From JAWCQZ01 sp038869515 [NCBI: Halobacteria archaeon] (GTDB taxonomy: Archaea > Halobacteriota > Syntropharchaeia > JACQPP01): DNA of 64,000 nucleotides. The notes beneath the pieces are model-generated. The model was not told the DNA's origin. It ran no database searches and worked only from the letters and a program-made list of their open reading frames with translations. Both the position numbers and the translations under genes were made by a program. Shown here piece by piece: positions 11,951 through 54,903 of the stretch (the first letter of the stretch is position 1; each line of letters starts with the position of its first letter). The stretch spans positions 62,001-126,000 of the forward strand of contig JAWCQZ010000002.1 of the NCBI GenBank assembly GCA_038869515.1. The letters run 5' to 3'.

Positions 11951-12334
11951 ATGGCGACCCTGGAAGAGTTGCGGGAAGAGACCCGGCGCATCGACCGGCA
12001 GCTGCTGGAGCTCATCGCGAAGCGCACGACGATGGGGCACACCATCGTGGAACTGAAGCGGCAGAAGGGGATGGAGCTCTACGACGAGGCGCACATCCGG
12101 GAGGTCCTCCAGATGGCGCGGGACTACGCCAAGAAGAACCGGCTCCACTCCAAGTCCCTCCAGCAGATTTTCGACATCCTCATCGAGATGCGGATGCACC
12201 AGGAGCTGGAGGACGTGGGACAATCCCTGGAGGCCGCCGGGGCCGCGTCTCCCTCCGGCGGAGAGGGGAAGCGGAAGGGCGGGCTGTTCGATTTCAGGCG
12301 CGACGTCGCCCTCGGAAGCCGGAAGCCGAAGTGA
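11951..12334 (+). CDS. aroQ: Chorismate mutase, AroQ class
   Basis: A 127-residue all-helical AroQ-type chorismate mutase converting chorismate to prephenate for Phe/Tyr synthesis. The N-terminal LEELREETRRIDRQLLELIAK gives the first active-site arginine and the dimer helix, with R/K positions in AKRTTMGHTIVELKRQKG, then YDEAHIREVL. The aspartate-to-Arg-Glu spacing is two residues longer than the D-x-x-R-E common in the family. The tail (GEGKRKGGLFDFRRD) is low-complexity and basic. ATG 11951 is preferred over an upstream ATG at 11885 because the domain begins there. The stop codon is the first base triplet of the 100-bp repeat element. A second mutase domain is at 35386. Confidence 0.85.
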   Translation: MATLEELREETRRIDRQLLELIAKRTTMGHTIVELKRQKGMELYDEAHIREVLQMARDYAKKNRLHSKSLQQIFDILIEMRMHQELEDVGQSLEAAGAASPSGGEGKRKGGLFDFRRDVALGSRKPK

Positions 12335-12430
12335 CAGAACTCGCGCTCGCTGCGCTCGCGCGAGTTCTGCGACGCCCCGGCCTGAAGCCCGGGGCGTCCG
12401 CCGGCGGGCCTTTTAAGAATTTTCGCGCAG
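12332..12430. repeat. 100-bp double-hairpin repeat, copy 1
   Basis: Begins at the TGA of the chorismate mutase gene. In order it holds a near-perfect hairpin (CAGAACTCGCGC ... GCGCGAGTTCTG), a second GC hairpin (GCCCCGG ... CCGGGGC), CCGCCGGCGGG, then CCTTTTAAGAATTTTCGCGC, whose TTTTAAG part looks like an archaeal TATA box. The copy at 54803-54903 differs by two substitutions and a 2-nt indel. It could end the upstream transcript and start the downstream one (RaSEA ATG about 60 nt further on); function is inference. Confidence 0.85.
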
Positions 12431-12477
12431 TGAAGCGCGGGGAAAGGGAGAAGTAGAGTCCCCTCCCAGGGCCGTTC

Positions 12478-13479
12478 ATGGGCATGGACACCAGCGGGGA
12501 CCCGACCGTCCCCATCGCCGTCTGGAAGGGGCGGGAGCTCCTGAAGCCTGGAGAGCCCGCCGACTCCCTGACCATCATCCTCCGGACAGTCGGGTGCTCC
12601 TGGGGCCGCTGCCTCATGTGCGGCTTTTTCAACATGACCTCCCCGGGCCTCGTCGCCTCCGACGCGCTCATCACCCAGTACGAGTCAGCGATGTCCGAGT
12701 GCCCCGAGGGGGCCGTCATCAAGCTCTACACTTCGGGCTCCTTCTACGACGCGAAGGAGGTCCCTCCCGAAGCCCAGGAGGAGATTCTCAAGAGGCTGGC
12801 CGGCGACCCCCGCCCCCGGAAGGTCATCATCGAGACGATGCCGGAATACATCACCCCGGAGATTTTCCGCCTCCCGGTCCCCCCGGGGCTCGAGTTCGCC
12901 ATCGGCCTCGAGTCCTCCAGCGACTACGTCCGGGACAGGTGCGTGGTGAAGGGGTTCACCTGGGAGGGGTTCAAGCGCGCCTGCGGGGTGGCCCGGGACC
13001 ACGGCGCCACCGTCAAGGCCTACACCATCCTGAAGCCCCCCTTCCTCACCGAGGCGGACGCCATCGAGGACGCCGTGAAGACCTGCCGGGACGCCTTCTC
13101 GGTCCCCAACGTGACCACCGTCTCCATGAACCTCTGCAACGTCCAGCGGAACACGCCGGTGGAGCGGCTGTGGCGGCGGGGCGAGTTCCGGCCCCCCTGG
13201 CTCTGGAGCGCCACCGAGGCCCTGGGGCGGATGCGCTCCGAGGCCCCGGCCGACCGGGTGGTGATTTCGGACCCCCTGGCCGCGGGCTCCCCCCGGGGCC
13301 CCCACAACTGCGGCGAGTGCGACGCGGGCTTCGCGGCCGCCATCCGCCGCTACGACCTGAGCCAGGACCCGGCGGAGTTCGGGGGGCTCTCCTGCGGGTG
13401 CCGCGACGTGTGGAGGACGGTCCTGGAACTGGAAGACCACGCCTTCGGAGCGCCGCTCGTCGAAGCGCGGGTTCGATAG
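12478..13479 (+). CDS. raSEA: Archaeosine biosynthesis radical SAM protein RaSEA
   Basis: A 333-residue radical SAM enzyme of the Elp3-like group that works with ArcS to convert preQ0-lysine at tRNA position 15 into archaeosine. The cluster motif is TVGCSWGRCLMCGFF (C-x4-C-x2-C). Other family signatures are LYTSGSFYDAKEVP, IIETMPEYITPEIF, AIGLESSSDYVRDRCVVKG, KAYTILKPPFLTEADAI, and a C-terminal cysteine group (HNCGECDAGF, LSCGCRDVW). It starts at ATG 12478, about 60 nt after the TATA-like tract of the 100-bp repeat. The partner arcS is not in the window. Confidence 0.92.
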   Translation: MGMDTSGDPTVPIAVWKGRELLKPGEPADSLTIILRTVGCSWGRCLMCGFFNMTSPGLVASDALITQYESAMSECPEGAVIKLYTSGSFYDAKEVPPEAQEEILKRLAGDPRPRKVIIETMPEYITPEIFRLPVPPGLEFAIGLESSSDYVRDRCVVKGFTWEGFKRACGVARDHGATVKAYTILKPPFLTEADAIEDAVKTCRDAFSVPNVTTVSMNLCNVQRNTPVERLWRRGEFRPPWLWSATEALGRMRSEAPADRVVISDPLAAGSPRGPHNCGECDAGFAAAIRRYDLSQDPAEFGGLSCGCRDVWRTVLELEDHAFGAPLVEARVR

Positions 13480-13510
13480 ACCCTCTGCCGCGTCGCCTGT
13501 CCGTTCATTC

Positions 13511-13551
13511 GTTGCCGACGGGACGGGAGGGTTTCCGAGTGGACCGGCAAC
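13511..13551. repeat. 37-bp dispersed repeat, copy 1
   Basis: Lies between two convergent genes, with outer arms GTTGCCG/CGGCAAC. Its 37-bp core (13515-13551) matches 32877-32913 at 31 of 37 positions; a third, shorter copy is at 48161-48188. The shared centre reads ACGRGAGGGTTYCCGAG. It may act as a bidirectional terminator at this site. Confidence 0.6.
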
Positions 13552-14401: not shown

Positions 14402-14411
14402 CAGGCCCTCC

Positions 14412-14894: not shown

Positions 14895-14918
14895 CGGCCT
14901 CCATGGGCGGGGGCAGGG

Positions 14919-15700: not shown

Positions 15701-16486
15701 TTATCGCGCCCGCGGCCGGACGCGGACGCGCATCGCGTAGCCCACGGCTCCGCCGACCATGAGGGCGTCGAGGAGCAGCGCCTGCGCGAGGCCGATCCCG
15801 GCGGGGGCGGCCTCGGGGACCGCCGCGGCCGCGGGCGCCCCGGGCGGGAGCCAGTCCGCGTTCCGGGTGAATGCGTTGAAGAGTCCCCCGGAGGCCAGCC
15901 CGGAGCCGCCGGACGGAAGCAGGACCGAAGGGTTGTCGCGGGGTCCCGGGGGCTGCGGGAGGGCGGGCTCCCCGCCGCCGCCTGCGGCCGCTCCCCCCGC
16001 GGCGGCCGGGGCGGCCCCGGGCGGGGGCGGCGCGGGGTCTGTGATGGGGGGCGGCCCGTGCTCCTCCCAGATGCACGAGTCGCAGGAGCGGATCTGGATG
16101 TGGACAAGGGAGAGCGGGAGGTCGGTGACGATGGGGAGGACCGCCTTGCCCGTGGAGTTCGTGGTCTCGACGCTGGTGACCTGCTCTCCGAGGGCGGTCC
16201 CGCGGGCCCCCCACCCGGGGACGGCGGCCCCGTTGTTGGTCACCGTCACGGTGTAGTAGCCCTGGAAGAGGGTGAATGAGGCCCCCCCGTAGGAGACAGT
16301 GGTGGAACTGATTTTGCTGGCGTCGGTGGAGACTTCCAGGGCGGAGGCGGAGCCCGCCAGGAGCAGCAGCGAGAGGGTGACCCATATGGCGGTCCCGCGG
16401 AATCCGCCCCGAACGAAGCGAGGGGCAGGGTTCCGCGCCCCGCGCGATGCGAGCGAAGCCAGCCGAGAGCGAAGAGGAGGGCTCAT
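15701..16486 (-). CDS. Secreted/anchored partner of the giant surface protein
   Basis: A 261-residue protein with an N-terminal hydrophobic signal (TAIWVTLSLLLLAGSASA) preceded by about 30 Arg/Ser-rich residues, an extracellular beta-rich domain (TVSYGGASFTLFQGYYTVTV), a CDSC pair, a long Pro/Gly/Ala linker, and a C-terminal membrane helix (ALLLDALMVGGAVGYAMRV) with a basic cytoplasmic end. It starts on the ATGA overlapping the stop of the 3333-residue protein, so translation is coupled. The larger protein has no C-terminal anchor of its own, so this could be its membrane tether; that is inference. Part of the N-terminal leader is encoded by a hairpin repeat at 16397-16436. Confidence 0.72.
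   Translation of the reverse strand: MSPPLRSRLASLASRGARNPAPRFVRGGFRGTAIWVTLSLLLLAGSASALEVSTDASKISSTTVSYGGASFTLFQGYYTVTVTNNGAAVPGWGARGTALGEQVTSVETTNSTGKAVLPIVTDLPLSLVHIQIRSCDSCIWEEHGPPPITDPAPPPPGAAPAAAGGAAAGGGGEPALPQPPGPRDNPSVLLPSGGSGLASGGLFNAFTRNADWLPPGAPAAAAVPEAAPAGIGLAQALLLDALMVGGAVGYAMRVRVRPRAR
16397..16436. repeat. GCGGAATCC...GGGTTCCGC hairpin element, copy 2
   Basis: A 14-bp stem (GCGGAATCCGCCCC with GGGGCAGGGTTCCGC, one bulge) around the loop GAACGAAGCGA, lying inside the 5' codons of the anchored partner gene, just before its signal peptide. In the reverse orientation the arms and loop match the element at 5880-5931. Both copies encode an ARNPA...GGFR-like peptide when read in the coding direction. 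Confidence 0.65.
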
Positions 16487-19400
16487 GGCATCACCCACTC
16501 CACTTTGTTTTTGAGGAGCGATATCTCCGTCGCCAGGGCGCTCGTCAGGAGGCTGGTGCCCTGGACGTAGGCGGTCGCCGGAGAGCCCGATGCCACCGTG
16601 ACGCCCATGACGAACTTCTCCTCGCTCCCGTCGCCGATGAACACCGAGATGTTGAACGCCGCCGATCCCGCGCCCTGGAGCCAGTCGCTCCAGGGGCTCC
16701 GGGTGGGGGTGATGGTGAGGTTGGCGTAGCCGCTGGCGTCGGTCACTCCCGAGATTTGCGTGGTTCCGTTGGACTGGCCCGCCCCGGAAAGGAGGGAGTG
16801 GCCCGAGGTCTCGACGATGCGGACCGTGAGGTTGGCCTTGGGGCTCCCGCCCTGGGTGGCCCGGACCGCCACCGTGGTGGGGACCCTGTTGTCCACGGTG
16901 GAGGGGGTCGCGTTGACCGTGGTGGAGACGCCGCTGAGGGTCACGGTGTTCTGGCTGCCGCCGTAGGCCGGGGCGGCGGCGATGGTGCCGGTGAGGTAGG
17001 AGATCTTGCTGACCGCCGCCGCGATTTCGCCGGGCAGGCTGGTGAAGAGGCTCCAGTAGTCCTCGCCGGAGAAAACGGGGCCGGAGCCCCGCGGCGCGAG
17101 GGCGGTGTTCACCGTGAGGACCGACTCGGGAGTGGTGTTGGCGCTCCCCGACGCCACCACCCGCATCGAGTATCCGGCGAGGGTCGAGGGGGCGGGGACC
17201 ACCGTCAGGTTCGCATAGCCGCCGGAGTTGGTAGTGCCGGAGACCGTCGTCCGGGTCGCCCTGGCCTGGGTCGGGGCCGCGAAGAGGCCGACTCCGTTGT
17301 ATTCGGTGACGTTGACCGTGGCCCCGTTCACCGGGTTGGAGCCGTTCATGACGCGGATGTTCAACTGGACCGGCCTGCCCGCGTCCACCGAGGAGGGGAG
17401 GTTGCCGACAGCCCACCCGGTGGCGAGGTTCTCGGCCGTGACCATGGAGGAGACGGAGCCGTTGGCATTGGTGGCGTTTCCGTAGCCTCGGAGGGTGTAG
17501 GGCCCCGCGGCGCCGGTTGCGTTCAGTTGGAGCGTGTAGGAGACGTTCTGGCCGGTCGAGCCGCCGGTGACGTAGGTCCCGTTCAGGGTCCCGACGCTGC
17601 CGTTCATCGCGGCGCCGCCGGCGTAGGAGACGCCGGAGGGGAGGGTGACGTTGTAGGTCAGGTTGTTCGCGTTTCCGGCCCCGGTGTTCTCGAGGACCAG
17701 CGTGTAGTTGAAGTTGCTGTTCCGGGCGACCTTCTCCGGGACGATGGCCGAGACCCGCAGGTCCGGGCCGCGGGCGGTCACGCTGCCGGCGGTCCCGGTG
17801 TGCGAGCCGCCGTTGGCCGAGGTCGCGTTGACCTGGACGGTGGAGTGGGTCCCAGCCTCGTCCGCCACCAGGTAGAAGCGGGAGGTGTTGGAGGCTCCCG
17901 CCGCGAGGGTCCCGACGCTGGAGGCGTTGGAGCCGTTGTTGAGCCTCAGGCCCGAGGGGAGGGTGATGTTGGCCCAGACGCCGGTGAGGCTGGAGTTGGC
18001 GCAGCTGGCGCAGGCGTTGGAGTTGGTCACGGTCACGTCGATGGTGAAGAGTTGCCCCACGGCCACGTCGGAGGCGTTGGGGGTGGCGCTGTCGAGGGTG
18101 AGGACCGTGGAGGAGACCGGGGAGGTCGTGGCCGTGGAGGTGTCGCCGGCGGCGACCTGGGTGGAGTTGTTCCCGTAGAGCACGAATGCGCAGGAGGAGC
18201 CCGGGGTGTCGAGGCGGTAGGTGTAGTTCGTCGAGTTGGAGCCGCCTCCGGCCGTCAGGTTCCCCAGGGAGCGGTTGGCGCTGCCGCTGACGAGTGTGGC
18301 CCCCGCGGGGCAGGTCCCGAGGACGACGTTGGCGGTCACCCCGGTGGCCGCCGTGGCGCCGCTGTTGGCGACGGTCACGGTGATGTTGAATGGCTGGTTG
18401 GAGGCGACGGCGGTGCGGTTCGGGGTGGCCGTCGTCGTTAGTGTCGGGCCGTCGGTCGTCACGGCCTGGGTATCGGTGAATGTGTCGGAACCGATGGTGG
18501 GAGAGGTTGCCTGGCCGTTCACGGTGTAGGCGCCGTAGGCCCCCGCCTGGAACGTGAAGTTCCGGCTCGCGCTGCCGCCGGCGGCGATCTGCGGGATGAC
18601 GCTCCAGTTGCCGGTCCCTCCCGAGTCGTTGCGAACGAACCTCAGGCCGGAGGCGCTCGCGTAGGCGGTGAGGTTGGTGCTGTTCACCGCCCGGGTGGCG
18701 TGGCCGTTGGTGACGGTGAACGTGACGTTGATGTAGCCGTTCAGGCCGACGGAGTCCCCGGTCCGGTTGGTCGCGCTGGTCACGGTGAGGGTCATGGGGG
18801 CGCAGAGGACGAGGCAGATGGATGAGGAGTTGGTCACGTTCGAGGTGTTGGTCGCCTTGGCCGCCGCGTCGAGGGTGTAGGTCTCGTTGGGCCCCGCGCT
18901 GAACTCCAGCGTCCAGTTGGCCCACGCGAACTGGCCCGGCGCGAGATTCCCGAGGAGGATGCCGTCGGAGCCGCTGCCGCCCAGGAGGGTGGAGTTGTTG
19001 TAGGCCAGCAGGCGGGTGATGTTGGCGTGGGCCGTCCGGTTCGCGGTGACGTTCGGGGCGACGGCGCCGCCGGTGTTCTTGACCCGGACCGAGAGGTTGA
19101 AGTCGTCCCCGGTCGCGTTGGCGCAGGGGGTCGAGGGGCAGTCGTAGGAGACCGACTTGTTCAACACCACGTAGTCGACCACGAGGGCCGGTTCCTGCGG
19201 AGTCGAGGGCGGGACCGCGACGTTCCAGGTCCACAACTCCTGGTCGCTGCCGTTCGCGTTGGCGGCCCAGGCGCTCACGTTCCAGTTCCCGGCGAGTGCG
19301 CTGGCGTTGGTGTAGGCCGCCGAGGCGACCGAGGCGTTGGTCTGGACCAGAGAGCCGTTGACGCGCCAGGTGACGGTGGCGGTCTGATTGAGCGACACCG

Positions 19401-22400
19401 AGAAGGTCCGGGAGGCGCCGGGCGAGTCGCTGACCGGACTCGCGGGGGAGGGGGAGGAGAAGGAGGGGTCGCCGACCACCGTGACCGTCCAGGTGCGGGT
19501 GGCGCTGGTCCCGTTGGCGTTGCTCACGTTGGCGGTGACGGCGAAGACCCCCCGGGAGGTGAAGTTGCGGCCGTATTGGGCGGCGGAGGCGGAGGCGTTG
19601 GTCTGGACCACCGAGCCGTCCACCTTCCAGGTCCAGTTGCCGGCCTGGTCGGAGGTCGCATTGAAGAGGACCCCGGTCCCCGCGCCGACGTCGAAGGATG
19701 TCGCGGAGGTTCCGGTGACGTTGTTGGAGGCGGAGGTGATGGAGGGGCCGTCCCCGGCGCTGATGGAGGCCTGGGCGGTGACGTTGGCGGAGCCGTTGCC
19801 GACGTCGGTGGAGACGGTGTAGGCGCCGTTGACCTCCACGCGGAAGGTGTAGTTGTATTCCCGGCTCTGGCCCGCGGGGACGCTCAGGCTCACGTTGTCG
19901 GAAGAGTTGCTGACGCGGGTCAGGCCCGCGGAGTCGTAGGTGGTGACGAGCCAGACCGAGAGCGGCGTCTCCGCCGCGCTGGTGACGGTGACGGTGTGGT
20001 TGAAGTGCTGGCCGGGAGCCGCCTGGCTCCGGTTGATGGCCGCGGAGGCGGTGTGGGTGGAGCCGACGGTGTAGGTCGCCTCCACGCTCGCCCCCTTCAG
20101 GCTCCCGTTCTTGATGCGGACCCAGACGGTGTGGCTCCCGGAGGAGGCCTTGCCGGCGAGGGTGAGGCGGTAGTTGCCGCCCGCGGTGTTGGAGAAGTCC
20201 GTGAAGGAGTCCGCGGCGCCGTCGTGGTGGACCGTGACGTCCCCGGAGGCGAGGCCCGCGACCCCGGCGTCGCTCTCGAGCAGTTTGGAGACGTTGAACA
20301 TCACGAGGACCGGCTGGGAAGGAGGATACTTCCCGCTGGAGGCGTTGGGCGCGGTGATGTTGACGCGGAGGGCCCGCTCGAGCCGGCTCATGGAGCCGAG
20401 GACGCCCGCGGTTCCGTTGCGGCCGCTGGTGAACTCGCCGCCCGAGTCCCGGTCGCGGCACCGGAGCGAGCCGCCCCCGCCGGAGCCGAAATCGTTGTCG
20501 GCGTCCTTGCACGCGTGGGGGCTCTTCAGGCGCCGGACGCCCTCCAGGACCGCCTTCCGGTAACTGTCGGTCCCGAACGTCCCGTAGGCGTTTCCGAGGG
20601 CCCGGAGGACCGACGCGGCCCCGCCCGTCTCGCCGCTGTCGCCGGTGTAGAAGCGGTCCGCCGCGATGTCGTGCCGCCACCGCAGTTCGCCGCTCCCGTC
20701 AATGGTGCCGCCGCCGTCCGCGTCGTCGGCGGCCTTGTCGGTCCCGGTCTGGAGGAGCCAGGAGGCGGCGCTCTGGGCCGCGCTCTTCAGCGAGGAAACA
20801 GTCGCGTTGGAGTCGCCGCCGTAGGCGGTCCGGGTCGCGTTGTAGAGCCCGACGAGGGTGTCGAGGACGCCCGCGGCGCCGTAGTCGCGGCCGGTGAGGC
20901 AGGGGGTCGCCGGGCTCGACGACGTGGAGCAGGCGGAGCCCGAGTCGAGGATGAGCCAGGCGCCGGAGGAAAGTTGCCGGGCCACGAGCCACCGGCCGCC
21001 CTTGACCGCGAGGTCGAGGTAGGCCGGGTCGCTGGTGGCGAAGTGGAGGTCGAGGAGGGCCTGGACGACGCCCGCGGTCCCCTCCTGGACCCCGGTGAAA
21101 TATTCGGGCCCGCCCGGGGGCGGGGGCAGGGTCCGCGGCCACTTCGCCTGGTCGGCGCCGACCGCCACCGCCTGGGAGACGAGCCAGTTCGCCGCGCTCT
21201 TCGCGGCGTTCAGGTATGTTACGTTTCCCGTGGCGTTGAACGCGTCCAGGAGAACCTCGATGGCCCCGGCGGCGCCGGTCATGGCGGTGTCCCGTTGGGA
21301 CGACGCGCCGCAGGCCCCTGCGCTCGGCGCGACGCAGAAGGAGAGGTTGGCGGTCCCGTCGGTGTAGGCCGAGCCGCTGGCGTTGTAGGCCACCGAGGTG
21401 TTGTTCAGGAGCCAGGCGAGCCCCTCCTTCGCCCCGCTCCAGTAGGAGCCGTTCCCGCTGAGGAGGTGGGCCCGCAGGAGGGCCTGGACGGGGCCGAGGG
21501 TGCCGCCCGGCAGGTCGCTGCGGACCGCGACCGCGCCCGCCGACTCCGACTGCATCCACCAGCGGCCGGTGGTCCCGGTCCGGGTGGCGTTGGTGAGGAG
21601 GAGCCAGTTGGAGGAGTTGTTCACCGCGCTCCGGAGGGCGGAGTCCCCGGTGGCTTCGTAGGCCTCGGCGAGCGCCAGGAGCGCGCCGGCGCCGCCCTCT
21701 CCGTCCGTGGTGGAGACGTTGGAGTCGTTCATCGAGAGTTTCCACTTGAGTTGCCCGCCCGAGGAGACCGCCATGGGGCCGCTCGCGAGTTCCCGGGCGG
21801 TCTCCTGGAGCAGGGCGGTCGGGGTCCCGGGGACGGAGAGGGTGAAGGTCCGGGTCTTGGTCTGGCCCGTGGAGTTGGTCGTGCTGTTGGCGAAGACCTC
21901 CAGCGTGTAGTCTCCGTTGCCGCTGACGGTGAAGGTGGTGTTGCACGCCTTGGTCCCCGCGCACTCGGAGGAGAGGTTGGTCCAGGCGTTGGGCTGGATG
22001 CGGGCCCGGAAGACGAGGATGTCCTCGGTGGTGGTGGTGTTCACCGGGATCTCCGCGTGGGAGAGAGTGGCCCCGGGGGCGGGGCTGGAGATGGTGATGA
22101 CGAAGCCGGTGATGTTGACCTTGACGACGTCGGTGGCCGTGATGTCGCTCGAGTTGAGCCCGGCGGCGTTCCTGGTGCGCATCTTGAACTCGTAGCACTT
22201 CATCGTGGTCAGGTCGGTCACGGTGTAGGGCGAGGCGATGCCGGAGGTCACGTTGGTCCAGTTGTTGGAGAAGGCGTTGCAGTTCGACCCGCTCAACGCG
22301 GTCTCGCGGCGGTCGAGGAAATTGGCCCCGATCCCCGACTCGGGGTCGCTGGCGTTGGTGAAGGTGAGGGTGACGTTCCCGGTGTCGTTGGTCCCGTTCA

Positions 22401-25400
22401 AGTAGGAGAGGGAGCCGCCCGTCGGGGCCGAGGTGTCCACCATGACCGCGGGGCCGCTGACGTTGGTCCAGTAGCCGTCGCCGTTGCTGACGTTGAGGTG
22501 GATGGCGATGCACCGGCCCGCGGTGGTGGTGACCGTCTGGGGCTGGGAGACGTTGGTGAAGTTGGTGGCGACCGCGCTCCACCCGGAGCAAGAGCCGGAG
22601 GAGAGGGTCGCGGTCTGGCTGCGGATGAGGTTCCCGTTGATGCCGGTCTCGGCGTCGGTGCCGTTCGTGAAGTTCACGGGGCGGCTCGTGTTGGTGTGGT
22701 AGCCACCGGTGTAGGAGATGTCCGTCCCCGTCGGCGGAGTCGCGTCGGTGACGTGGGCCCGCGTGATGTTGCCCCAGGACTCCGACTCCAGGTTCCCGAG
22801 AGCCACGACCCGGAGGTAGTAGTACCAGTCGCCGCCCGCGATGCCGGTGTCGTTGTAGGAGAGGGTCGAGTTCGCCGCCTGCGTGATGTTCGCGATGCGG
22901 ACGTAGGTGGTGGTGCCGTTGTGGCCGTAGGAGGAGTTGTTGCGCGAGCGGTGGAGGGTGTAGCGGAGGTAGCCGCCGTTCGGGTCCTTCTGGGAGGTGA
23001 AGGAGAGATTGGCGTGGTCGGTCCCGGTGGAGGGCGAGAGGTCGGGAATCTTCTCGAGGAGGGAGGAGTCGAAGTTCATCGGGTTGTTCGTGCTCAGGTT
23101 CCGGTGGGTCACCGCGGTGTAGTTGGCGCCGTCGTTGGAGGTGGTCCGGTTGACCTCTGTGAGGACCACGGCCCGCTCGCACTTGGCCCAGCCGGCGCCC
23201 CACTGGGTCCCGGCGTCCCAGAAGAACCGGCCGTCGAACATCTGCTGGTTCGGCGGGGTCCGGGAGTCCCCGAGGATGGAGTCGGCAAGCTCGAGACCGC
23301 GGGCGAACCCTTTGAGGGTGGCGTTGACGCTCGCCCCGGGGTGGGTGGCGTTGAAGAGATTGGTGGAGTTGAAGACATTGCCCACGATGTTCGTGGCGAC
23401 GCCGCCGCCGGTCCCGCTGCAGGAAGGCGAGGCGACGCTCTGGACCGCAGACCACGCGGTGTTGCCCGCCGCGTCGGCGGAGCGCACCCGGTAGTAGATG
23501 ACGGCGTCGTAGTCCACGTCGTCCACGGGGTCGTCCGCCCCCCCGGGGCCGTTCTGGGCGGAGGTGTTGTGGCTGGTGACGAGGCTTCCGTTGGACCAGT
23601 TCCGGGTCGCGAGGAGGTCGGGGTCGCGGCCGACGAGAGCGAATCCGCTGGCGGGCTCGTCGGTGGTCCAGGTGACGTGGAGGCGGAGGAAGCCGCCGAC
23701 GTTGTCGATGGCGGCGGAGAGGCCGGAGATGACCGGGGGCGACAGGTCCGCCGCCGTGACCGTCCACGACACGTTGGACGAAGTGCCGTTGGTGTTGTTC
23801 ACCGTGGCGTTCACGATGAAGGTGGCGGGGAGAGTCGCGTTCGAGAAGGACCGGTCGAAGGTGCCGGAGGTCGCGTTCACGCTGCTGTTCTCGACCACTC
23901 CGTTCACTCGCCAAGTCCAGGTGCCCGATTGGTTGGCGCTGCCGTTGAACCGGACGACGGTCCCGTTGTCCACGGTGAAAGTCAGGGTGGCGTTGTTTGT
24001 GGCGTTGTTCCCCCAGGAGGTGACGTTCGGAGGCCCCTCCAGGGCGCCAAACGTGGCGCCGGAGAGGGGAGTCGTGTTCCAGGTGTTGAACTGGTCGCGC
24101 GCCGTGACGTTCAGAGCGGCGTAGGTCCCGTGGCCCGCCGTGGAGGTCTCCACGTAGGTGTAGCGGTTGGGGTAGTAGAACCTGACCGCCGTGGAGTTGG
24201 AGCAGGAGGCGGTGTCGAAGGAGTGCTGGATGCCGCCGTCGCCGGTCTGGTTCTCGATGCCCACGGTGGCCGTGGCGCAGCTGTCGCCGTTGGCCAGGCC
24301 GCGGCTTCCGACGTCGGCGTAGTTGAACTGGATGTCGGAGGAGTTCTCGTAGAGCACCGCCTCGAAGTTGTAGGTGTCGGTCGAGCAACCGGAGACGAAA
24401 TCGGAGACGTTCCACTGAACCACGAAGATGCGGTTCGGGGCCTCTCCGAGAGTCTGGCCGAAGACGCCGCCCCCGGCCCCCTGGCCGTGGCAGAGGTCGT
24501 CCCAGAAGGGGGCCACGATGCCGTTCGGAGTCGCGGTGTTGGGGATGGCGACGTTGGAGAAGACCGCGCTGCTGTTGACGAAGTTGAGGTATCCGTCGTT
24601 GCAGATGAAAACCCGGTCGTAGGGAGTCCCGTAGAAGTTGAAGGAGAACCCCATGCTGACGTTGGCGGTGGTGCAGATGTCGTTCCCGGCGCCCATCCGG
24701 GCGGAGAGGTTGACGCCGGTGCCGGAGACATTGATGAAGAAGTAAGAGGGTCCGGCGCTCTGGCTGGAGTTCCGGATTCCGTAGACTCCCCCGGTCTGGA
24801 AGGCGGAGCCCGAGCCGCTGTAGAAGGTCTCGTTGTAGGCTGCGCGGGCGAGGCTGCGCTGGAGGGTGGAGCCGTTGGGGTAGGAGATGTTCATGCGGAC
24901 CTCGCTCACGTTGCCCGGGCTGTGGACGGTGGTGTTGAAGCGGGCCGGACTCCCGGTGCTCAGGCTTGAGATGTTCCAGGCGGAGGAGCGGAGGTCGAGT
25001 CTCGGGTATGCCCAGGTCGCCGACTCGGGGTTGTTGTACCAAGCGAAGGTGCTGGTGCCGTGGTTGGGAGACCGGAGGTTGCTCCAGGTGCCGTCGCCCT
25101 GGAAGATGCCCGCGTTGAACTGGGTCGTGGTGTCGCGGTAGAAAACCAGCGGCCCCTCGCGGCCGGTGGAGTCGGTGGCAAGCACAACGTGCTCCGGCTC
25201 GTCCGACGTGGTCGAGGACGCGGGGTCGGGGAGGGTCTGGTTGAACCCCTCCCACGACTCGTTCGAAGAGTGCCAGCGGAGGTCTCCCGCCTGGTCGAAC
25301 GTCCCCTGCCCGTAGATGACGTGGGCCCTTCCGAGGGGGTCCCAGGCGACGTCGAAGGAGCGGCGCGGGTAAGGCGATGTCGAGGTGGTCGGGCAGGTGG

Positions 25401-26484
25401 AGGTGAGGCTGGAATTGACGAGCCGGTCGGGGCCCCAGGTGTTGGTGGTCCCGTTCCAGACCTGCGCGTGGAGGGTGCAGGTCCCCCGCGTCTCGAGGAA
25501 GGCCATCGCGATGTTGCTCGAGGCGGGGTCGGGAACGAGGCGGAACTGGGTCAGGGTGTCGTCCGCGCCCGCGCTGCTGGCGGTGTACTCCGGCGAGAGG
25601 GTTCCGTTGGTGGAGTAGTAGATGCGGTAGCGGGGCGCGGTGGAGGTGCGCTCGCCGTAGGCGATGAGAGCCTCATCGCCGCTCCTCTCGTAGGCGATGT
25701 CGAAGGAGATGTTCGCGGCCCACGGCGCGGAGGTGGCGTCGGTCTCGATGACGCTGAGGTTGGTCCAGTTGCTCGCGTTCCGGACGAGGAGCGTGATGTC
25801 GCGGTTCCCGGCCTGCACGGCGACGAGGGTCTCGTTCCTCGCCGGATTGGACCTGGCGACGACGCCCTCGATGAAGACGGCGGAGGAGCTCCCCGATGGC
25901 TGGACGGATGGGGTGTCCATCTCGACCGACCAGTTCCGGACCGGGTCCCAGACGCGATACTCCAAGTAGGTGTCGGCGTTCTGGACGCTCGCCTGCGTGT
26001 TGTTGTAGAAGGCGAGCGCCTCGCCGGAGACCGGGTTCCACACCACGGCGACGTCGGGCGTGCTGCGGCCGTAGACCGTCTGGCCGGAGTAGGGGAAGAT
26101 GAAGTCCCTGCTGGCGTTGGTGATTGCGTTGAAAATCTGGAACGAGACGTTGCCCGTGGCGGTGACGGTGTCGCCGGCGGTGTTGATGGCATACCGGCTC
26201 CCCACGAGGACGTCGCCCGTCCGGGGGTTGGCGTCGGTGACGGTTAAGTCCACGACCCAGGTGGTGGCGATGCGGTTCATCCCGTCCGAGTGCCGGAGGA
26301 CTGCCCCGAACGGGGACCAGGCGGAGCCGTCCCAGTAGACGTACTGGGGGTAGTAGCGCTGGGTGGTGCTCGAGTTGTTGTAAACCGCGATGGCGGGGAG
26401 GGCGGAGGCCTGGGTCGAGAGGAGGATGAGGGCCGCGACTGCGACAATGCAGAGCGCTGCTCGGCCTCGCCCCCGACCTCCCAT
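16483..26484 (-). CDS. Giant (3333-residue) secreted multidomain surface protein
   Basis: Exported, apparently heavily glycosylated cell-surface protein. A signal peptide (ALCIVAVAALILLSTQASA) opens it. Residues about 30-560 repeat blade-like motifs (VAVVWNPVSGEALAFYNN). About 600-770 resembles a nidogen-type domain (FNFYGTPYDRVFICNDGYLN, FWDDLCHGQG). Ig/FnIII-like domains follow, then an alpha/alpha-toroid region at about 1555-2035 with at least five G-x-x-G-[AV] helical-hairpin repeats (GAGALLALAEAYEATGD, GTAGVVQALLDLHFATSDPAY). After about 2035 come CARDB/DUF11-like Ig modules. N-x-S/T sequons are dense throughout. The C-terminus (LLKNKVEWVMP) has no membrane anchor or PGF-CTERM motif. It is coupled to the anchored gene downstream. 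Its enzymatic or adhesive role is unknown. Confidence 0.85.
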   Translation of the reverse strand: MGGRGRGRAALCIVAVAALILLSTQASALPAIAVYNNSSTTQRYYPQYVYWDGSAWSPFGAVLRHSDGMNRIATTWVVDLTVTDANPRTGDVLVGSRYAINTAGDTVTATGNVSFQIFNAITNASRDFIFPYSGQTVYGRSTPDVAVVWNPVSGEALAFYNNTQASVQNADTYLEYRVWDPVRNWSVEMDTPSVQPSGSSSAVFIEGVVARSNPARNETLVAVQAGNRDITLLVRNASNWTNLSVIETDATSAPWAANISFDIAYERSGDEALIAYGERTSTAPRYRIYYSTNGTLSPEYTASSAGADDTLTQFRLVPDPASSNIAMAFLETRGTCTLHAQVWNGTTNTWGPDRLVNSSLTSTCPTTSTSPYPRRSFDVAWDPLGRAHVIYGQGTFDQAGDLRWHSSNESWEGFNQTLPDPASSTTSDEPEHVVLATDSTGREGPLVFYRDTTTQFNAGIFQGDGTWSNLRSPNHGTSTFAWYNNPESATWAYPRLDLRSSAWNISSLSTGSPARFNTTVHSPGNVSEVRMNISYPNGSTLQRSLARAAYNETFYSGSGSAFQTGGVYGIRNSSQSAGPSYFFINVSGTGVNLSARMGAGNDICTTANVSMGFSFNFYGTPYDRVFICNDGYLNFVNSSAVFSNVAIPNTATPNGIVAPFWDDLCHGQGAGGGVFGQTLGEAPNRIFVVQWNVSDFVSGCSTDTYNFEAVLYENSSDIQFNYADVGSRGLANGDSCATATVGIENQTGDGGIQHSFDTASCSNSTAVRFYYPNRYTYVETSTAGHGTYAALNVTARDQFNTWNTTPLSGATFGALEGPPNVTSWGNNATNNATLTFTVDNGTVVRFNGSANQSGTWTWRVNGVVENSSVNATSGTFDRSFSNATLPATFIVNATVNNTNGTSSNVSWTVTAADLSPPVISGLSAAIDNVGGFLRLHVTWTTDEPASGFALVGRDPDLLATRNWSNGSLVTSHNTSAQNGPGGADDPVDDVDYDAVIYYRVRSADAAGNTAWSAVQSVASPSCSGTGGGVATNIVGNVFNSTNLFNATHPGASVNATLKGFARGLELADSILGDSRTPPNQQMFDGRFFWDAGTQWGAGWAKCERAVVLTEVNRTTSNDGANYTAVTHRNLSTNNPMNFDSSLLEKIPDLSPSTGTDHANLSFTSQKDPNGGYLRYTLHRSRNNSSYGHNGTTTYVRIANITQAANSTLSYNDTGIAGGDWYYYLRVVALGNLESESWGNITRAHVTDATPPTGTDISYTGGYHTNTSRPVNFTNGTDAETGINGNLIRSQTATLSSGSCSGWSAVATNFTNVSQPQTVTTTAGRCIAIHLNVSNGDGYWTNVSGPAVMVDTSAPTGGSLSYLNGTNDTGNVTLTFTNASDPESGIGANFLDRRETALSGSNCNAFSNNWTNVTSGIASPYTVTDLTTMKCYEFKMRTRNAAGLNSSDITATDVVKVNITGFVITISSPAPGATLSHAEIPVNTTTTEDILVFRARIQPNAWTNLSSECAGTKACNTTFTVSGNGDYTLEVFANSTTNSTGQTKTRTFTLSVPGTPTALLQETARELASGPMAVSSGGQLKWKLSMNDSNVSTTDGEGGAGALLALAEAYEATGDSALRSAVNNSSNWLLLTNATRTGTTGRWWMQSESAGAVAVRSDLPGGTLGPVQALLRAHLLSGNGSYWSGAKEGLAWLLNNTSVAYNASGSAYTDGTANLSFCVAPSAGACGASSQRDTAMTGAAGAIEVLLDAFNATGNVTYLNAAKSAANWLVSQAVAVGADQAKWPRTLPPPPGGPEYFTGVQEGTAGVVQALLDLHFATSDPAYLDLAVKGGRWLVARQLSSGAWLILDSGSACSTSSSPATPCLTGRDYGAAGVLDTLVGLYNATRTAYGGDSNATVSSLKSAAQSAASWLLQTGTDKAADDADGGGTIDGSGELRWRHDIAADRFYTGDSGETGGAASVLRALGNAYGTFGTDSYRKAVLEGVRRLKSPHACKDADNDFGSGGGGSLRCRDRDSGGEFTSGRNGTAGVLGSMSRLERALRVNITAPNASSGKYPPSQPVLVMFNVSKLLESDAGVAGLASGDVTVHHDGAADSFTDFSNTAGGNYRLTLAGKASSGSHTVWVRIKNGSLKGASVEATYTVGSTHTASAAINRSQAAPGQHFNHTVTVTSAAETPLSVWLVTTYDSAGLTRVSNSSDNVSLSVPAGQSREYNYTFRVEVNGAYTVSTDVGNGSANVTAQASISAGDGPSITSASNNVTGTSATSFDVGAGTGVLFNATSDQAGNWTWKVDGSVVQTNASASAAQYGRNFTSRGVFAVTANVSNANGTSATRTWTVTVVGDPSFSSPSPASPVSDSPGASRTFSVSLNQTATVTWRVNGSLVQTNASVASAAYTNASALAGNWNVSAWAANANGSDQELWTWNVAVPPSTPQEPALVVDYVVLNKSVSYDCPSTPCANATGDDFNLSVRVKNTGGAVAPNVTANRTAHANITRLLAYNNSTLLGGSGSDGILLGNLAPGQFAWANWTLEFSAGPNETYTLDAAAKATNTSNVTNSSSICLVLCAPMTLTVTSATNRTGDSVGLNGYINVTFTVTNGHATRAVNSTNLTAYASASGLRFVRNDSGGTGNWSVIPQIAAGGSASRNFTFQAGAYGAYTVNGQATSPTIGSDTFTDTQAVTTDGPTLTTTATPNRTAVASNQPFNITVTVANSGATAATGVTANVVLGTCPAGATLVSGSANRSLGNLTAGGGSNSTNYTYRLDTPGSSCAFVLYGNNSTQVAAGDTSTATTSPVSSTVLTLDSATPNASDVAVGQLFTIDVTVTNSNACASCANSSLTGVWANITLPSGLRLNNGSNASSVGTLAAGASNTSRFYLVADEAGTHSTVQVNATSANGGSHTGTAGSVTARGPDLRVSAIVPEKVARNSNFNYTLVLENTGAGNANNLTYNVTLPSGVSYAGGAAMNGSVGTLNGTYVTGGSTGQNVSYTLQLNATGAAGPYTLRGYGNATNANGSVSSMVTAENLATGWAVGNLPSSVDAGRPVQLNIRVMNGSNPVNGATVNVTEYNGVGLFAAPTQARATRTTVSGTTNSGGYANLTVVPAPSTLAGYSMRVVASGSANTTPESVLTVNTALAPRGSGPVFSGEDYWSLFTSLPGEIAAAVSKISYLTGTIAAAPAYGGSQNTVTLSGVSTTVNATPSTVDNRVPTTVAVRATQGGSPKANLTVRIVETSGHSLLSGAGQSNGTTQISGVTDASGYANLTITPTRSPWSDWLQGAGSAAFNISVFIGDGSEEKFVMGVTVASGSPATAYVQGTSLLTSALATEISLLKNKVEWVMP

Positions 26485-26682: not shown

Positions 26683-26788
26683 ACCCGTCCTCTTTCTTCG
26701 ATGAAGCCAATTACTTTTGGAAATGGTTAAACCTCCCGGGCGCCTCCACCCGATGGTGGCCGAGTCCGCCACCCTCCCCCCGGAGGCC
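26683..26788. repeat. 106-bp direct repeat A flanking vapBC
   Basis: Aligns without gaps to 27481-27586 (offset exactly 798 nt) with about 11 mismatches. It contains the equivalent of the promoter, start codon and first ten codons of the regulator gene at 27551, but the frame leads nowhere. The repeats bracket the VapBC toxin-antitoxin module. Confidence 0.9.
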
Positions 26789-26833
26789 TCCGGCCCATTC
26801 TCCGGTGGTGGATATCTCCGCCTGCCGAAAAGC

Positions 26834-27480: not shown

Positions 27481-27586
27481 ACCCGTCCTCTTTCCCCGAT
27501 GAAGCGCATTACTTTTGGAAAGGCTTAAACCTCCCGGGCGCCTCCACTCGATGATGGCCGAGTCCGCCACCCAACCCCCGGAAGCC
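27481..27586. repeat. 106-bp direct repeat B at the regulator gene start
   Basis: Partner of 26683-26788. This copy is the functional one: it contains the TATA-like GGCTTAAACC (about 27521-27530, near 25 nt before ATG 27551) and the first codons of the winged-helix gene. About 90% identity between copies implies a fairly old duplication. Confidence 0.9.
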
Positions 27587-28033
27587 CGGCCCCCGTCCGG
27601 CGGCGCCGTGGACGAGGCGCTCCGCCAGAGGTTCCAGGAGCTGCTCGACTACTCGGAGAAGTTCTTCCGCGACGTCCAGACCCTGGTCGCCCAGGGGCGC
27701 CGCCTCGACCTCCGGAAGGAGGCGAAAATCAACTCCGAGATCGCCCGCCGGGTGACCGCCAAGTGGAGTGTCGAAATCCTCTACCTCCTCTACATGGGCG
27801 GCCCCATGGGCTTCGAGAACATCCGCAAGACCCTCGGGACCATCTCCTCCAAGACCCTCTCGGAGAGGCTCAAGACCCTGGAGAGACTGGGCTACGTGGA
27901 GCGCTCGGTCCAGCCCGGCCGGCCCATCCGGGTCCGCTACTCCCTCACCGACCGGGGCCGCTCCATCTCCACCATCGGCGCGGGGCTCTTCCTCTACCTG
28001 CGCCACGTCGAGGGGCGGCTGCGGCCGGTCTGA
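27551..28033 (+). CDS. HxlR-type winged-helix regulator
   Basis: A 160-residue DNA-binding protein. After a 60-residue N-terminal extension with a coiled stretch (LRQRFQELLDYSEKFFRDVQ), residues about 65-150 form the HxlR wing: ARRVTAKWSVEILYLLYMGG, MGFENIRKTLGTISSKTLSERL, RLGYVERSVQPGRP and VRYSLTDRGRS. No redox cysteines are visible. The start codons ATG-ATG at 27551 and 27554 lie inside direct repeat B. Aconitase begins about 40 nt downstream on the same strand, so it may be the target or simply a neighbour. Confidence 0.82.
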   Translation: MMAESATQPPEARPPSGGAVDEALRQRFQELLDYSEKFFRDVQTLVAQGRRLDLRKEAKINSEIARRVTAKWSVEILYLLYMGGPMGFENIRKTLGTISSKTLSERLKTLERLGYVERSVQPGRPIRVRYSLTDRGRSISTIGAGLFLYLRHVEGRLRPV

Positions 28034-35386: not shown

Positions 35387-35411
35387 GAGATGAGATGGGA
35401 GGGAGAGGACT

Positions 35412-36257: not shown

Positions 36258-36928
36258 GGCGACCCCGCGCGAACGAAGTGAGTGCGGGAGGGGCACCATG
36301 TGAAGTCGCACTCCCCGCACCGGGGCCCGACGGGCCGGCACACCTCCTGCCCGAACCGGACGAAGAGCTCGTTGAGGTCGAGCCAGTATCGGCGCGGGAT
36401 GGACGCGACCAGCGCATCCTCGGTCTCCTCCGGGGTGCGCGTCCTCACCCAGTTGAGGCGGTTGGAGATGCGGTGGACATGGGTGTCCACCGGGATGGCG
36501 GGCTTTCCGAACCCGTAGACGAGGACGCAGTTGGCGGTCTTGCGCCCCACGCCGGGAAGCGCGAGGAGTTCTTCGAGAGACGGGGGGACCCGCCCCCCGT
36601 GGCGCTCCCGGAGCACGCGGCACACCTCCCTCAGCACTCTCGACTTCTGGTTGTAGAATCCCGCCGGGCGGATGAGGCGGCCCAGCTCGGACGGGGGGGC
36701 GGACTCGATGGCCTCGGGGGTCGCGTATCTTGCGAAGAGGGCCCGGGCGGCCCTCTCCGTGTTCTCGTCCCGGGTCCGCTGGCTCAGAATGGTGGCGATG
36801 AGGACCTTGAAGGGCTCCTCGGGCTCCGCCTCGCGCACCGCGCCGAGGGTGGTCGTGCTCCCCCGGAAGCGGCGGCGGAGGGAGGCGAAAACCCGCTCGA
36901 CGTGGCGGGGGTGCGGGGCGGGTGCCAT
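36254..36928 (-). CDS. nth: Endonuclease III
   Basis: A 224-residue DNA glycosylase/AP lyase for oxidised pyrimidines. The helix-hairpin-helix LPGVGRKTANCVLVYGFG with its catalytic lysine and the IPVDTHVHRISNRL aspartate are intact. The iron-sulfur loop reads CRPVGPRCGECDFTWC, giving C-x6-C-x2-C-x4-C, one residue shorter in the last interval than the usual x5. The C-terminal SRTHFVRAG is encoded by an ACTCACTTCGTTCG tract resembling the loops of the hairpin repeats. It starts at 36928 with a TATA box 28 nt upstream and is first in the nth-aroK-purM operon. Confidence 0.92.
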   Translation of the reverse strand: MAPAPHPRHVERVFASLRRRFRGSTTTLGAVREAEPEEPFKVLIATILSQRTRDENTERAARALFARYATPEAIESAPPSELGRLIRPAGFYNQKSRVLREVCRVLRERHGGRVPPSLEELLALPGVGRKTANCVLVYGFGKPAIPVDTHVHRISNRLNWVRTRTPEETEDALVASIPRRYWLDLNELFVRFGQEVCRPVGPRCGECDFTWCPSRTHFVRAGSP

Positions 36929-42012: not shown

Positions 42013-42017
42013 GGCGG

Positions 42018-52021: not shown

Positions 52022-52048
52022 TCATGCCTCCTTGGTCGGGCCGCGCGC

Positions 52049-52178
52049 TCGATGCGCCACTCGCCATCGCTCGCTGCTCTCGCTCGGGCTCGTCCGCGGC
52101 TGTGATGTGCGCGAGCTGTCGAGAGCCCCCAGAAAGGCGTGGAAGGGAGACGACCCCCTTCGGTGGCTGGCGCATTGA
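52049..52178. repeat. 130-bp segment bounded by 11-bp inverted repeats
   Basis: TCGATGCGCCA at 52049-52059 and TGGCGCATTGA at 52168-52178 are inverted repeats with one mismatch. The interior includes TCGCTCGCTGCTCTCGCTCG, like the loops of other hairpin repeats here, and no gene. It fills the gap between hexuloisomerase and Dph2. It could be a miniature element; only this copy is in the window. Confidence 0.45.
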
Positions 52179-52179
52179 G

Positions 52180-53187: not shown

Positions 53188-53277
53188 CCCTCGGACTCCC
53201 CCCCTCCGGGAAAAAGGGTGAGGGGCGCGACCCCGGAAGAAAGTTTTTAGGGGGCTGCCCCCAGCCCCCAGTGGGGG

Positions 53278-53697
53278 ATGAAACCGCCGCTCGTGAGCGG
53301 TCCTGTGACGATTCTTCGGGACTGCCTGGACACACTCGCCCGCCTCTGCGAAGGGCCGGTGGAGCAGGGAGGCCACCTCCTGGGGACCCGTTCTCCCCGG
53401 GGGTGCCTGATTTACGGAGCCCTCCCTCTCTCCCGGTCCCTCCGCACCCCTCTCGGGTTCCTGCCGGAGCGGTGGCGCCCCTCCCGCGGTCGCGGAGAGA
53501 TGGTCGGGTGGTTCCACAGTCATCCCGGCCGGGACGTCCACCTCAGCCGCGCGGACGTCCGGGTCCACCGCCACCTCTTCCCCCGGGGGGACGGCCTGGC
53601 CCTCGTGCTCGGGGGAATCGACCGGCGCCCCGGTACGGCCCTTGCCCTCTACACCGGCTCGCCCCCCCGGGCCGTGGAGGTGCTGCGGGTTTTGTGA
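53278..53697 (+). CDS. JAMM/MPN+ metalloprotease
   Basis: A 139-residue single-domain JAMM protease. Catalytic Glu in GPVEQGGHLLGT; zinc motif MVGWFHSHPGRDVHLSRAD fits H-x-H-x7-S-x2-D exactly. In archaea such enzymes cleave isopeptide bonds of ubiquitin-like SAMP conjugates or process sulfur-carrier proteins. ATG 53278 has a TATA-like AGTTTTTAG at 53242-53250. It overlaps the next gene (GTGA) and is first in a three-gene operon with an unknown alpha-helical protein and a DUF192 lipoprotein. Confidence 0.9.
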   Translation: MKPPLVSGPVTILRDCLDTLARLCEGPVEQGGHLLGTRSPRGCLIYGALPLSRSLRTPLGFLPERWRPSRGRGEMVGWFHSHPGRDVHLSRADVRVHRHLFPRGDGLALVLGGIDRRPGTALALYTGSPPRAVEVLRVL

Positions 53698-54377
53698 CGA
53701 GAAAAACCCCTGGCCGGAAGAGGCCCCTCCGGGCCGCCGCGGGCCACGGCGACGCGGCCAAAAAGGTGGAACTCATTCGGCGCGAACTCACGAAGGAGCT
53801 GGACGAAGGGCTCGCCTACGTCGAGCGACAGGTCGGGACCCTCCGGAACGGGCCCATCGGACTCCTCGTCTCGCCCCTCCTCCGGGGGCTCTTCCATTTC
53901 ACCGCCCTCCCCGCCGCCCGCCGCCGGGGCTACCGGCGCATGGACATCTACTTCCGCCTGCTCCAGGAGCCGGGGAGCCTCGACCGGATCATCTCCCGCC
54001 ACCTCGACGAGTACCTGGAGACGAACGAGGCGTGGGTCCGGGCCGACAAGAGCCACCCCGAGGCGAAGCGCCTCCGGGGCTACCTGGTGGAGGAGCTCAA
54101 GAGCCACCTGGAGCTGGGCCGGGCCCTCCTGGGCGGGGAGGGGCGGACCTACGACGAACTGGTCCGGCGCGCCTTCCCCCGCCGGAGCACCGTGGACCGC
54201 CTGGTGGCCCAGCAGTTCGACGCGATGGAGAAGGCCCTTCTCCTCGTCCAGGAGGCGGAGGGGCTGGTGGAGATTCCGGCGTCCCTCCGGGCCCACGTGG
54301 ACCGACTCCTCCGCTCCGCCCTCGCCTACGCCCGGACGCGCTCCCGCCGCCGCCTCGACAAGATTTACGCCGGATGA
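53694..54377 (+). CDS. Alpha-helical protein of unknown function in the JAMM operon
   Basis: A 227-residue charged, mostly helical soluble protein. The N-terminus is very basic (VTRKTPGRKRPLRAAAGHGD), followed by helices KKVELIRRELTKELDEGLAY, DIYFRLLQEPGSLDRIISRH and KRLRGYLVEELKSHLELGRA, then RRSTVDRLVAQQFDAMEKAL. One less polar stretch (IGLLVSPLLRGLFHFTALP) could touch a membrane. I recognise no family. The GTG start at 53694 overlaps the protease stop, and its own stop overlaps the next ATG, so its product is probably made together with the protease. Confidence 0.65.
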   Translation: MTRKTPGRKRPLRAAAGHGDAAKKVELIRRELTKELDEGLAYVERQVGTLRNGPIGLLVSPLLRGLFHFTALPAARRRGYRRMDIYFRLLQEPGSLDRIISRHLDEYLETNEAWVRADKSHPEAKRLRGYLVEELKSHLELGRALLGGEGRTYDELVRRAFPRRSTVDRLVAQQFDAMEKALLLVQEAEGLVEIPASLRAHVDRLLRSALAYARTRSRRRLDKIYAG

Positions 54378-54805
54378 GGGCCGGGCCCCTCCTCCTGAGC
54401 GGCCTCCTGCTCCTCTCGGCCTGCGCCCAGACCCCCTCGACGGCCGTGGTGCAGTTCCCCGGCGCCCCGCCCCTCCGCGCCGAGGTGGCCGACGAGCCCG
54501 GCGAACGGGAGCGGGGGCTGATGTTCCGACCTTCCATCGCGGCCGGCGAGGCGATGCTCTTCGTCTTCCCCGAAGAGCGGGCGTGGGGCTTCTGGATGAA
54601 GAACGTGGCCTTCCCCATCGACATCGTCTGGCTCTCCGCCGACGGGACCGTGGTCCACGTGGTCTCGGTCCCCCCCTGTCTCGCGGACCCGTGCGCGACC
54701 TATGAGCCGGGAGCCCCCGCCCTCTACGTGGTCGAGACCGCGGCGGGCTTCGCGGCGAACCACTCGGTCGTGCCCGGGGTGCGGGCGGCCATCTCCGGCC
54801 TGTGA
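54374..54805 (+). CDS. DUF192 lipoprotein
   Basis: A 143-residue protein with a lipobox (LLSGLLLLSACAQTP) and a DUF192 domain: RAEVADEPGERERGLMFRPS, AMLFVFPEERAWGFWMKNVA, FPIDIVWLSADGTVVHVVSV and a cysteine pair in PPCLADPCATYEPG. DUF192 proteins are extracellular in bacteria and archaea and have no established role. The start overlaps the upstream stop by 4 nt. The TGA stop at 54803 is the first triplet of the 100-bp repeat, exactly as at the chorismate mutase gene. Confidence 0.87.
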   Translation: MRAGPLLLSGLLLLSACAQTPSTAVVQFPGAPPLRAEVADEPGERERGLMFRPSIAAGEAMLFVFPEERAWGFWMKNVAFPIDIVWLSADGTVVHVVSVPPCLADPCATYEPGAPALYVVETAAGFAANHSVVPGVRAAISGL

Positions 54806-54903
54806 CAGAACTCGCGCTCGCTGCGCTCGCGCGAGTTCTGCGATGCCCCGGTCTGAAGCCCGGGGCGTCTCCGCCGGCGGGCCTTTTAAGAATTTTCGCG
54901 CAG
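54803..54903. repeat. 100-bp double-hairpin repeat, copy 2
   Basis: Starts at the TGA of the DUF192 gene and matches 12332-12430 throughout, with two C/T differences and a 2-nt indel. Both hairpins and the CCTTTTAAGAATTTT tract are kept. After GCGCAG the copies diverge (here CGAAAATTTTTG). The downstream gene is the small frame at 54962. Confidence 0.85.

What the first reader, a model, noticed from the sequence alone, without database searches (positions are those of the whole stretch)
12332..54903. Near-identical 100-bp double-hairpin element placed exactly at two stop codons
Copies at 12332-12430 and 54803-54903 differ by two substitutions and a 2-nt indel although they are 42 kb apart and follow unrelated genes (chorismate mutase; DUF192 lipoprotein). 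In both, the first three bases are the TGA stop, so the element supplies or abuts the stop codon. Each has two stem-loops, a GC dyad and a TATA-like TTTTAAG tract. This could be a mobile palindromic unit, a structured RNA, or a combined terminator/promoter cassette.
Basis: seen in the sequence. Interest (0 to 1): 0.75.

Follow-up and report, generated by a model that had tools for sequence, protein, structure and literature searches.

The report
Dispersed hairpin cassette at stop codons
Two almost identical 100-base DNA pieces that fold into hairpins sit right behind the stop codons of two unrelated genes in an uncultured archaeon, and its nearest held relative carries about fifty similarly built pieces around promoter-like sites, so this looks like a repeated genetic cassette that separates neighbouring genes.

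Summary
Each holds a 12-pair hairpin directly after the stop, a 10-pair GC hairpin, and CCTTTTAAG. Copy 2 adds a third hairpin, whose 12-nt 3' arm is exactly what copy 1 lacks. No Rfam match; no whole-unit match elsewhere in the searches made. The source genome is not held. By RpoA'' the archaeon falls nearest Methanotrichaceae's phylum; the best of 246 genomes sampled there is unnamed G640 (66%). G640 has about 50 places of a like-built family: hairpin, 31-36 nt spacer, AACCTTTAT, hairpin, with compensatory changes. Where an upstream gene runs the same way, the first hairpin begins at its stop codon in 9 of 11 copies. A model of that family ranks the two window copies first to fourth among window matches, but a generic GC palindrome scores nearly as high. 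Best reading: a lineage-specific dispersed palindromic cassette that closes one gene and carries a promoter for the next. Function and means of spread are inferred.

The parts
12332..12435 (+). copy 1 of the cassette, from the TGA stop of chorismate mutase to TGAAG
   Evidence: pairwise alignment with copy 2
12335..12369 (+). hairpin A, 12 perfect outer pairs, directly after the stop codon
12371..12398 (+). hairpin M, 10 GC-rich pairs, 8-nt loop with CTGAAG
12410..12417 (+). TATA-like CTTTTAAG, 60 nt between it and the RaSEA start codon at 12478
   Evidence: promoter role inferred
12478..13479 (+). downstream gene of copy 1: archaeosine-biosynthesis radical SAM protein RaSEA
   Evidence: TIGR01210, 301 bits over cut-off 212
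54803..54920 (+). copy 2 of the cassette, from the TGA stop of the DUF192 gene to TGAAG
54806..54840 (+). hairpin A, identical to copy 1
54842..54869 (+). hairpin M; one C-G pair of copy 1 is U-G here, the other substitution lies in the loop
54883..54890 (+). TATA-like CTTTTAAG
   Evidence: promoter role inferred
54887..54915 (+). hairpin B, 13 pairs, AT-rich arms, overlapping the end of the TATA-like tract; its 3' arm (54904-54915) is absent from copy 1
55066..56025 (+). downstream gene of copy 2: Na/Ca exchanger family protein (a 35-aa frame at 54962-55069 may precede it, unverified)
   Evidence: PF01699; ATG at 54962

Best explanation
The two sites are copies of a dispersed, palindrome-rich intergenic cassette of about 104-118 bp, the same kind of thing as a family at about 50 places in the related genome G640. 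Shown: the copies are near identical, start at a stop codon, and carry hairpin A, a GC hairpin, a TATA-like tract and (copy 2) hairpin B; G640 has a multi-copy family with the same order, similar length and spacing, conserved pairing and changed letters. Inferred: the cassette works at gene boundaries. Hairpin A directly behind the stop codon closes the upstream message (3' end or stability structure, possibly termination). The TATA-like box starts the message of the next gene. Hairpin B lies where transcription would begin, so it would form fully only in RNA that reads through from the upstream gene, where it would mask the next start region. The spread is most likely by copying of a non-autonomous element or by gene conversion; the agent is unknown.
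For: Near identity over 100 bp with unrelated flanks. Multi-copy family in G640: AACCTTTATNTTTTTTCC has 60 matches with up to 3 mismatches against 3 for the reversed control. Model R1, built from 16 copies, gives 61 rows in G640, about 50 distinct places by my count, the best at E 2e-26. Pairing is kept through change: 15 of 24 consensus pairs have double changes; B arms pair in 354 of 372 cells against 0.695 with partners shuffled, maximum 0.772 in 2000. The first hairpin begins at the stop codon in 9 of 11 copies with a same-strand upstream frame; TGA, TAG and TAA stops are each matched on the far arm. The predicted start codon lies within 2 nt of the end of hairpin B in 9 of 35 copies (no chance level computed). 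R1 puts its four best window matches on the two copies: 25.4, 19.7, 19.7 and 17.4 bits; the best in 469,239 bases of 90 other loci is 12.4. Density is alike: 2 in 64 kb and about 50 in about 1.5 Mb.
Against: The best R1 match to copy 2 is on the minus strand (25.4 against 19.7 bits on plus), so its orientation relative to the G640 family is unsettled; the minus match to copy 1 covers hairpin A only. A fifth window match elsewhere (36264-36288) scores 16.3, and a generic GC palindrome in L238 scores 19.0, so descent from one family is not proven. In the other 57 genomes of G640's class R1 found nothing better than E 0.84, with strict filters. The two window copies are too alike to show covariation. 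7 of 18 G640 copies with hairpin A face a region that reads as coding on the other strand, so A is not only a 3'-end feature. In the G640 sample, stems of 9 or more at stops are 6 of 318 against 1-5 at shifted positions; only at 11 or more is it 5 against 0-2. TATA-like words lie 15-50 nt before 4 of 26 window starts, against 3 and 1 of 26 further upstream. In the window 60 nt (copy 1) and 71 or 175 nt (copy 2) lie between the TATA-like tract and the next start codon, more than at those four starts, where the word begins 29-35 nt before the start codon.
Confidence: 0.62

Rival explanations
1. A plain non-autonomous mobile element (MITE- or REP-like); its position at stop codons only reflects that other insertions are purged, and the TATA-like tract is incidental.
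For: Two near-identical copies with unrelated flanks; multi-copy family in G640; copies there also occur beside genes read on the other strand.
Against: No Y1 transposase in G640, while 5 of 14 control genomes ring (the genome may be incomplete). I saw no terminal inverted repeats and no certain target duplication. The TATA-like box and its distance to hairpin A are conserved in G640.
Confidence: 0.2
2. Two copies only, made by a recent duplication or gene conversion, without function.
For: Only two copies are seen in 64 kb. No whole-unit match in 389 Thermoplasmatota genomes or 392 genomes of the phylum of G016 (both drawn from larger groups; at most two candidates per genome scored; only pieces of up to about 60 bases), none in plasmids, and no exact 31-mer in viral contigs or 21-mer in genome contigs.
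Against: The exact start at both stop codons, the hairpins, and a like-built multi-copy family in the nearest held relative.
Confidence: 0.1
3. Palindromes of the CGAGCGnAGCGAGCG kind arise and are kept perfect by a mutational process (template switching within quasi-palindromes), so symmetry and apparent compensatory change need no selection and no shared element.
For: The GC palindrome core occurs in other genomes of the phylum (L237-L240), and one of these scores 19 bits with R1. Copies 1 and 2 differ by exactly one hairpin arm.
Against: The unpaired spacer (ACCGAGCCCC, AACCTTTAT) is conserved between G640 copies, which template switching does not explain.
Confidence: 0.08

Closest known systems
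Repetitive extragenic palindromes (REP) of bacteria, also reported for archaea (PMC12306157, passages seen)
   Same: Short dispersed intergenic palindromes; some lie within 15 nt of a stop codon, where the passages say they lower translation in E. coli.
   Different: Larger unit (about 104-123 bp) with two or three different hairpins and a TATA-like box; hairpin A begins at or directly behind the stop codon; no Y1 transposase found in G640.
Promoter-bearing MITEs such as the neisserial Correia element (PMC10969869, passages seen)
   Same: Small dispersed repeats that carry a promoter for a neighbouring gene.
   Different: No terminal inverted repeats or certain target duplication seen here; archaeal TATA-like box instead of a sigma-70 promoter; promoter activity untested.
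GC-rich palindromes in other genomes of the phylum (L237-L240, unnamed; that haloarchaea are rich in them is recalled)
   Same: Same GC palindrome core as hairpin A or close variants of it.
   Different: Core only: matches of 22-27 bases to hairpin A; surroundings not those of the window unit.

Membership tests
REP/RAYT system | palindromic dispersed extragenic repeat | tested here: met
   2 copies in the window; about 50 places of a like-built family in G640
REP/RAYT system | REP-associated tyrosine transposase in the genome | tested here: inconclusive
   PF01797: 0 of 1 in G640, which may be incomplete; source genome not held
MITE | terminal inverted repeats and target-site duplication | tested here: inconclusive
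   none seen in the alignment; GTGA occurs at both ends of both copies, but copy 1 has a 12-nt indel there; no empty site available
family of G640 cassettes (model R1) | full-length match to the covariance model above background | tested here: inconclusive
   25.4 (minus) and 19.7 (plus) bits for copy 2, 17.4 (plus) for copy 1; background 12.4, but 19.0 for a generic palindrome and 17.7 and 16.4 for two loci picked out by R1 itself
any Rfam family | score over the gathering threshold | tested here: not met
   only tRNA-Asp in the window
archaeal promoter | TATA box about 25 nt before a mapped transcript start | not testable with these tools
   TATA-like tract present; no transcript data

The most novel reading that the evidence does not exclude
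A dispersed cassette that runs from stop codon to start codon and brings everything needed to split two genes into separate transcription units: a hairpin at (in G640 containing) the stop codon, a promoter, and a second hairpin that would hide the next start codon in read-through RNA but not in RNA begun at its own promoter, so that the genome re-wires operons by copying one 110-bp part.
Probability: 0.2. Interest if true: 0.8.

Novelty: new variant of a known kind. Interest (0 to 1): 0.55.

Why it matters
How archaea separate transcripts of tightly packed neighbouring genes, and how new promoters spread through a genome, are open questions. A multi-copy cassette that starts at stop codons, holds a TATA-like box and keeps its pairing while its letters change would be a natural experiment with about fifty replicates in one small genome.

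Tried and rejected
Thermoplasmatota as the home phylum was rejected: RaSEA and RpoA'' fit Methanotrichaceae and G640 better. Short BLAST pieces in Thermoplasmatota such as L063 and L065 lie in stop-free frames of 517 and 506 codons and are taken as chance; the other rows were not all checked. L235 (80% over 62 bases) lies in a stop-free frame of 516 codons and was not counted as a copy. No Rfam family at gathering thresholds. No copies in plasmids, viral contigs (31-mer) or genome contigs (21-mer). A bidirectional-promoter idea (TTTTAT on the reverse side of hairpin A in G640) was dropped: only part of the copies have it. Paper searches found no description of this layout (listings of at most 15 rows each, and passages of PMC12306157 and PMC10969869).
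Full report
What is there. The window (70.0% GC) is archaeal: it has RNA polymerase A'', diphthamide enzyme Dph2 and RaSEA. The upstream genes are a chorismate mutase and a DUF192 protein; the downstream genes, on the same strand, are RaSEA and a Na/Ca exchanger. Each copy has hairpin A (12 pairs, starting right behind the stop), hairpin M (10 pairs) and CCTTTTAAG. Of the two substitutions, one turns a C-G pair of M into U-G and one lies in its loop. Copy 2 continues into hairpin B, 54887-54915. Copy 1 lacks exactly its 3' arm of 12 nt, after which both read TGAAG. CCTTTTAA occurs three times in the window on either strand, all three between predicted genes, two of them in these copies.

Beyond chance. 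A scan for stems scoring 11 or more (one mismatch allowed) finds seven hairpins in the window; the two copies of hairpin A are the only ones that start at a stop codon. At 62 predicted stops, 2 carry such a stem, against 0 at each of six shifted positions. Gene predictions are from my own simple codon model, so gene counts are approximate.

Where it comes from. No genome is held for the window. The five best RaSEA relatives are Methanothrix or Methanotrichaceae records (47-49%), while records named Thermoplasmata, Thermoplasmatales or Thermoplasmatota gave 34-40%. RpoA'' gave at most 54% among the rows listed for 194 genomes of the phylum of a Thermoplasmatales genome, 59% in a Methanotrichaceae genome (G016), and 66% in G640, the best of 246 genomes drawn from the phylum of G016.

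The nearest held relative. In the 58 genomes of G640's class, 29 have a match to the 113-bp query at E 1 or less; G640 has 16 short matches, any other at most 4. Reading the G640 places showed why: G640 has the same layout in other letters. Its core AACCTTTATNTTTTTTCC occurs 60 times with up to 3 mismatches against 3 for the reversed control. From 50 fetched loci and four sampled stretches, 44 distinct places with up to 2 mismatches were listed. 18 have hairpin A at 28-40 nt before the core (observed 31-36), 35 have hairpin B right after it, 16 have both. These 16 are 102-123 bp long and most share an unpaired spacer motif close to ACCGAGCCCC. Several show a short GGGC...GCCC pairing in the spacer, like hairpin M; this I saw by eye only, and RNAalifold did not predict it.

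Pairing is kept while letters change. RNAalifold finds 24 pairs, 15 with at least one double change. Hairpin A keeps 144 of 144 cells paired in 16 copies (2 of 18 dropped for lack of an anchor; two were anchored on the other arm) against 0.804 with shuffled partners, maximum 0.917. Hairpin B keeps 354 of 372 in 31 copies (4 of 35 dropped) against 0.695, maximum 0.772. The hairpins were chosen for being complementary, so these percentages are inflated; the variety of pair types is the sounder sign. Stop codons take part: TGA with TCA, TAG with CTA, TAA with TTA on the far arm. In the window the TGA lies just outside the stem.

Placement. Of 18 copies with hairpin A, 11 have a same-strand upstream frame; in 9 of them hairpin A starts at the stop codon or 1-2 nt before it, in 2 it starts 22 and 29 nt after the beginning of the stop codon. 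The other 7 face a region that reads as coding on the other strand. In the 310-kb sample 5 of 318 stops have stems of 11 or more at the stop against 0-2 at six shifted positions, but at 9 or more it is 6 against 1-5; the sample was chosen through hits, so the rate is biased upward. Hairpin B ends within 2 nt of the predicted start codon in 9 of 35 copies; start predictions are rough and no chance level was computed.

Is the window element the same thing? Model R1, built without the window, places its four best window matches on the two reported copies, followed by 16.3 bits at 36264-36288. The best of 90 other loci (469,239 bases) is 12.4 bits. Against this, a GC palindrome in L238 reaches 19.0 bits, and two loci that R1 itself had picked from the class reach 17.7 and 16.4; copy 2 also scores higher on the minus strand. 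So the same layout is well supported, common descent only moderately. R1 finds 61 rows in G640 (16 places built the model; about 50 distinct places after removing second-strand and adjacent rows) and one weak row each in 2 of the other 57 genomes.

How it may work. In the direction of the genes, the order is stop codon, hairpin A, GC hairpin, TATA-like box, hairpin B, next gene. From general knowledge of archaeal promoters (recalled) transcription starts about 25 nt after the TATA box, which falls inside or behind hairpin B; hence B would be complete only in read-through RNA. This suggests a boundary cassette: A closes or protects the upstream message, the TATA-like box starts the next, and B guards against translation of read-through. 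None of these steps is shown. Hairpins close behind stop codons lower translation in E. coli (REP, passages of PMC12306157), and dispersed repeats with promoters are known in bacteria (Correia, passages of PMC10969869), so parts of the idea have precedents. The combination in archaea was not found in the searches made.

Spread. Near identity of the two copies calls for recent copying or conversion. No Y1 transposase was found in G640 although 5 of 14 control genomes ring. GTGA at both ends of both copies could be a target duplication but is too short to tell.

Noticed in passing
window 26683-26796 and 27481-27592: A second near-identical pair, about 110 bp and 90% alike, 798 bp apart, with a TTAAACC tract and an ATG in it: perhaps a duplicated promoter-and-start region of two neighbouring genes.
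   Followed up: partly
window 34064-35506, minus strand: One open frame matches a chorismate mutase (residues 44-125, below that model's cut-off) and PurM (133-451, over cut-off): a possible chorismate mutase-PurM fusion besides the separate chorismate mutase at 11885-12334.
   Followed up: no
L135 near 19616 (minus), L137 near 5959 (minus), L117, L118: G640 has a further repeated hairpin, TGAATCACCCCGGCCTGAAGGCCGGGG, starting at predicted stop codons in L135 and L137; it and related hairpins in L117 and L118 resemble hairpin M of the window.
   Followed up: partly
L237, L238, L239, L240: Unnamed GC-rich genomes of the same phylum (3.0-3.5 Mb) carry the GC palindrome core of hairpin A, in some places near T-rich tracts; whether these places lie between genes was not established.
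   Followed up: partly
window 16483-26484, minus strand: A 3333-residue repetitive protein with a DUF11 match just over the cut-off, perhaps a cell-surface protein.
   Followed up: partly
window 1553-2989 (minus) and 10252-11847 (plus): Two biotin carboxylase-like genes on opposite strands, about 7 kb apart, 73% alike over 199 bases of DNA.
   Followed up: no
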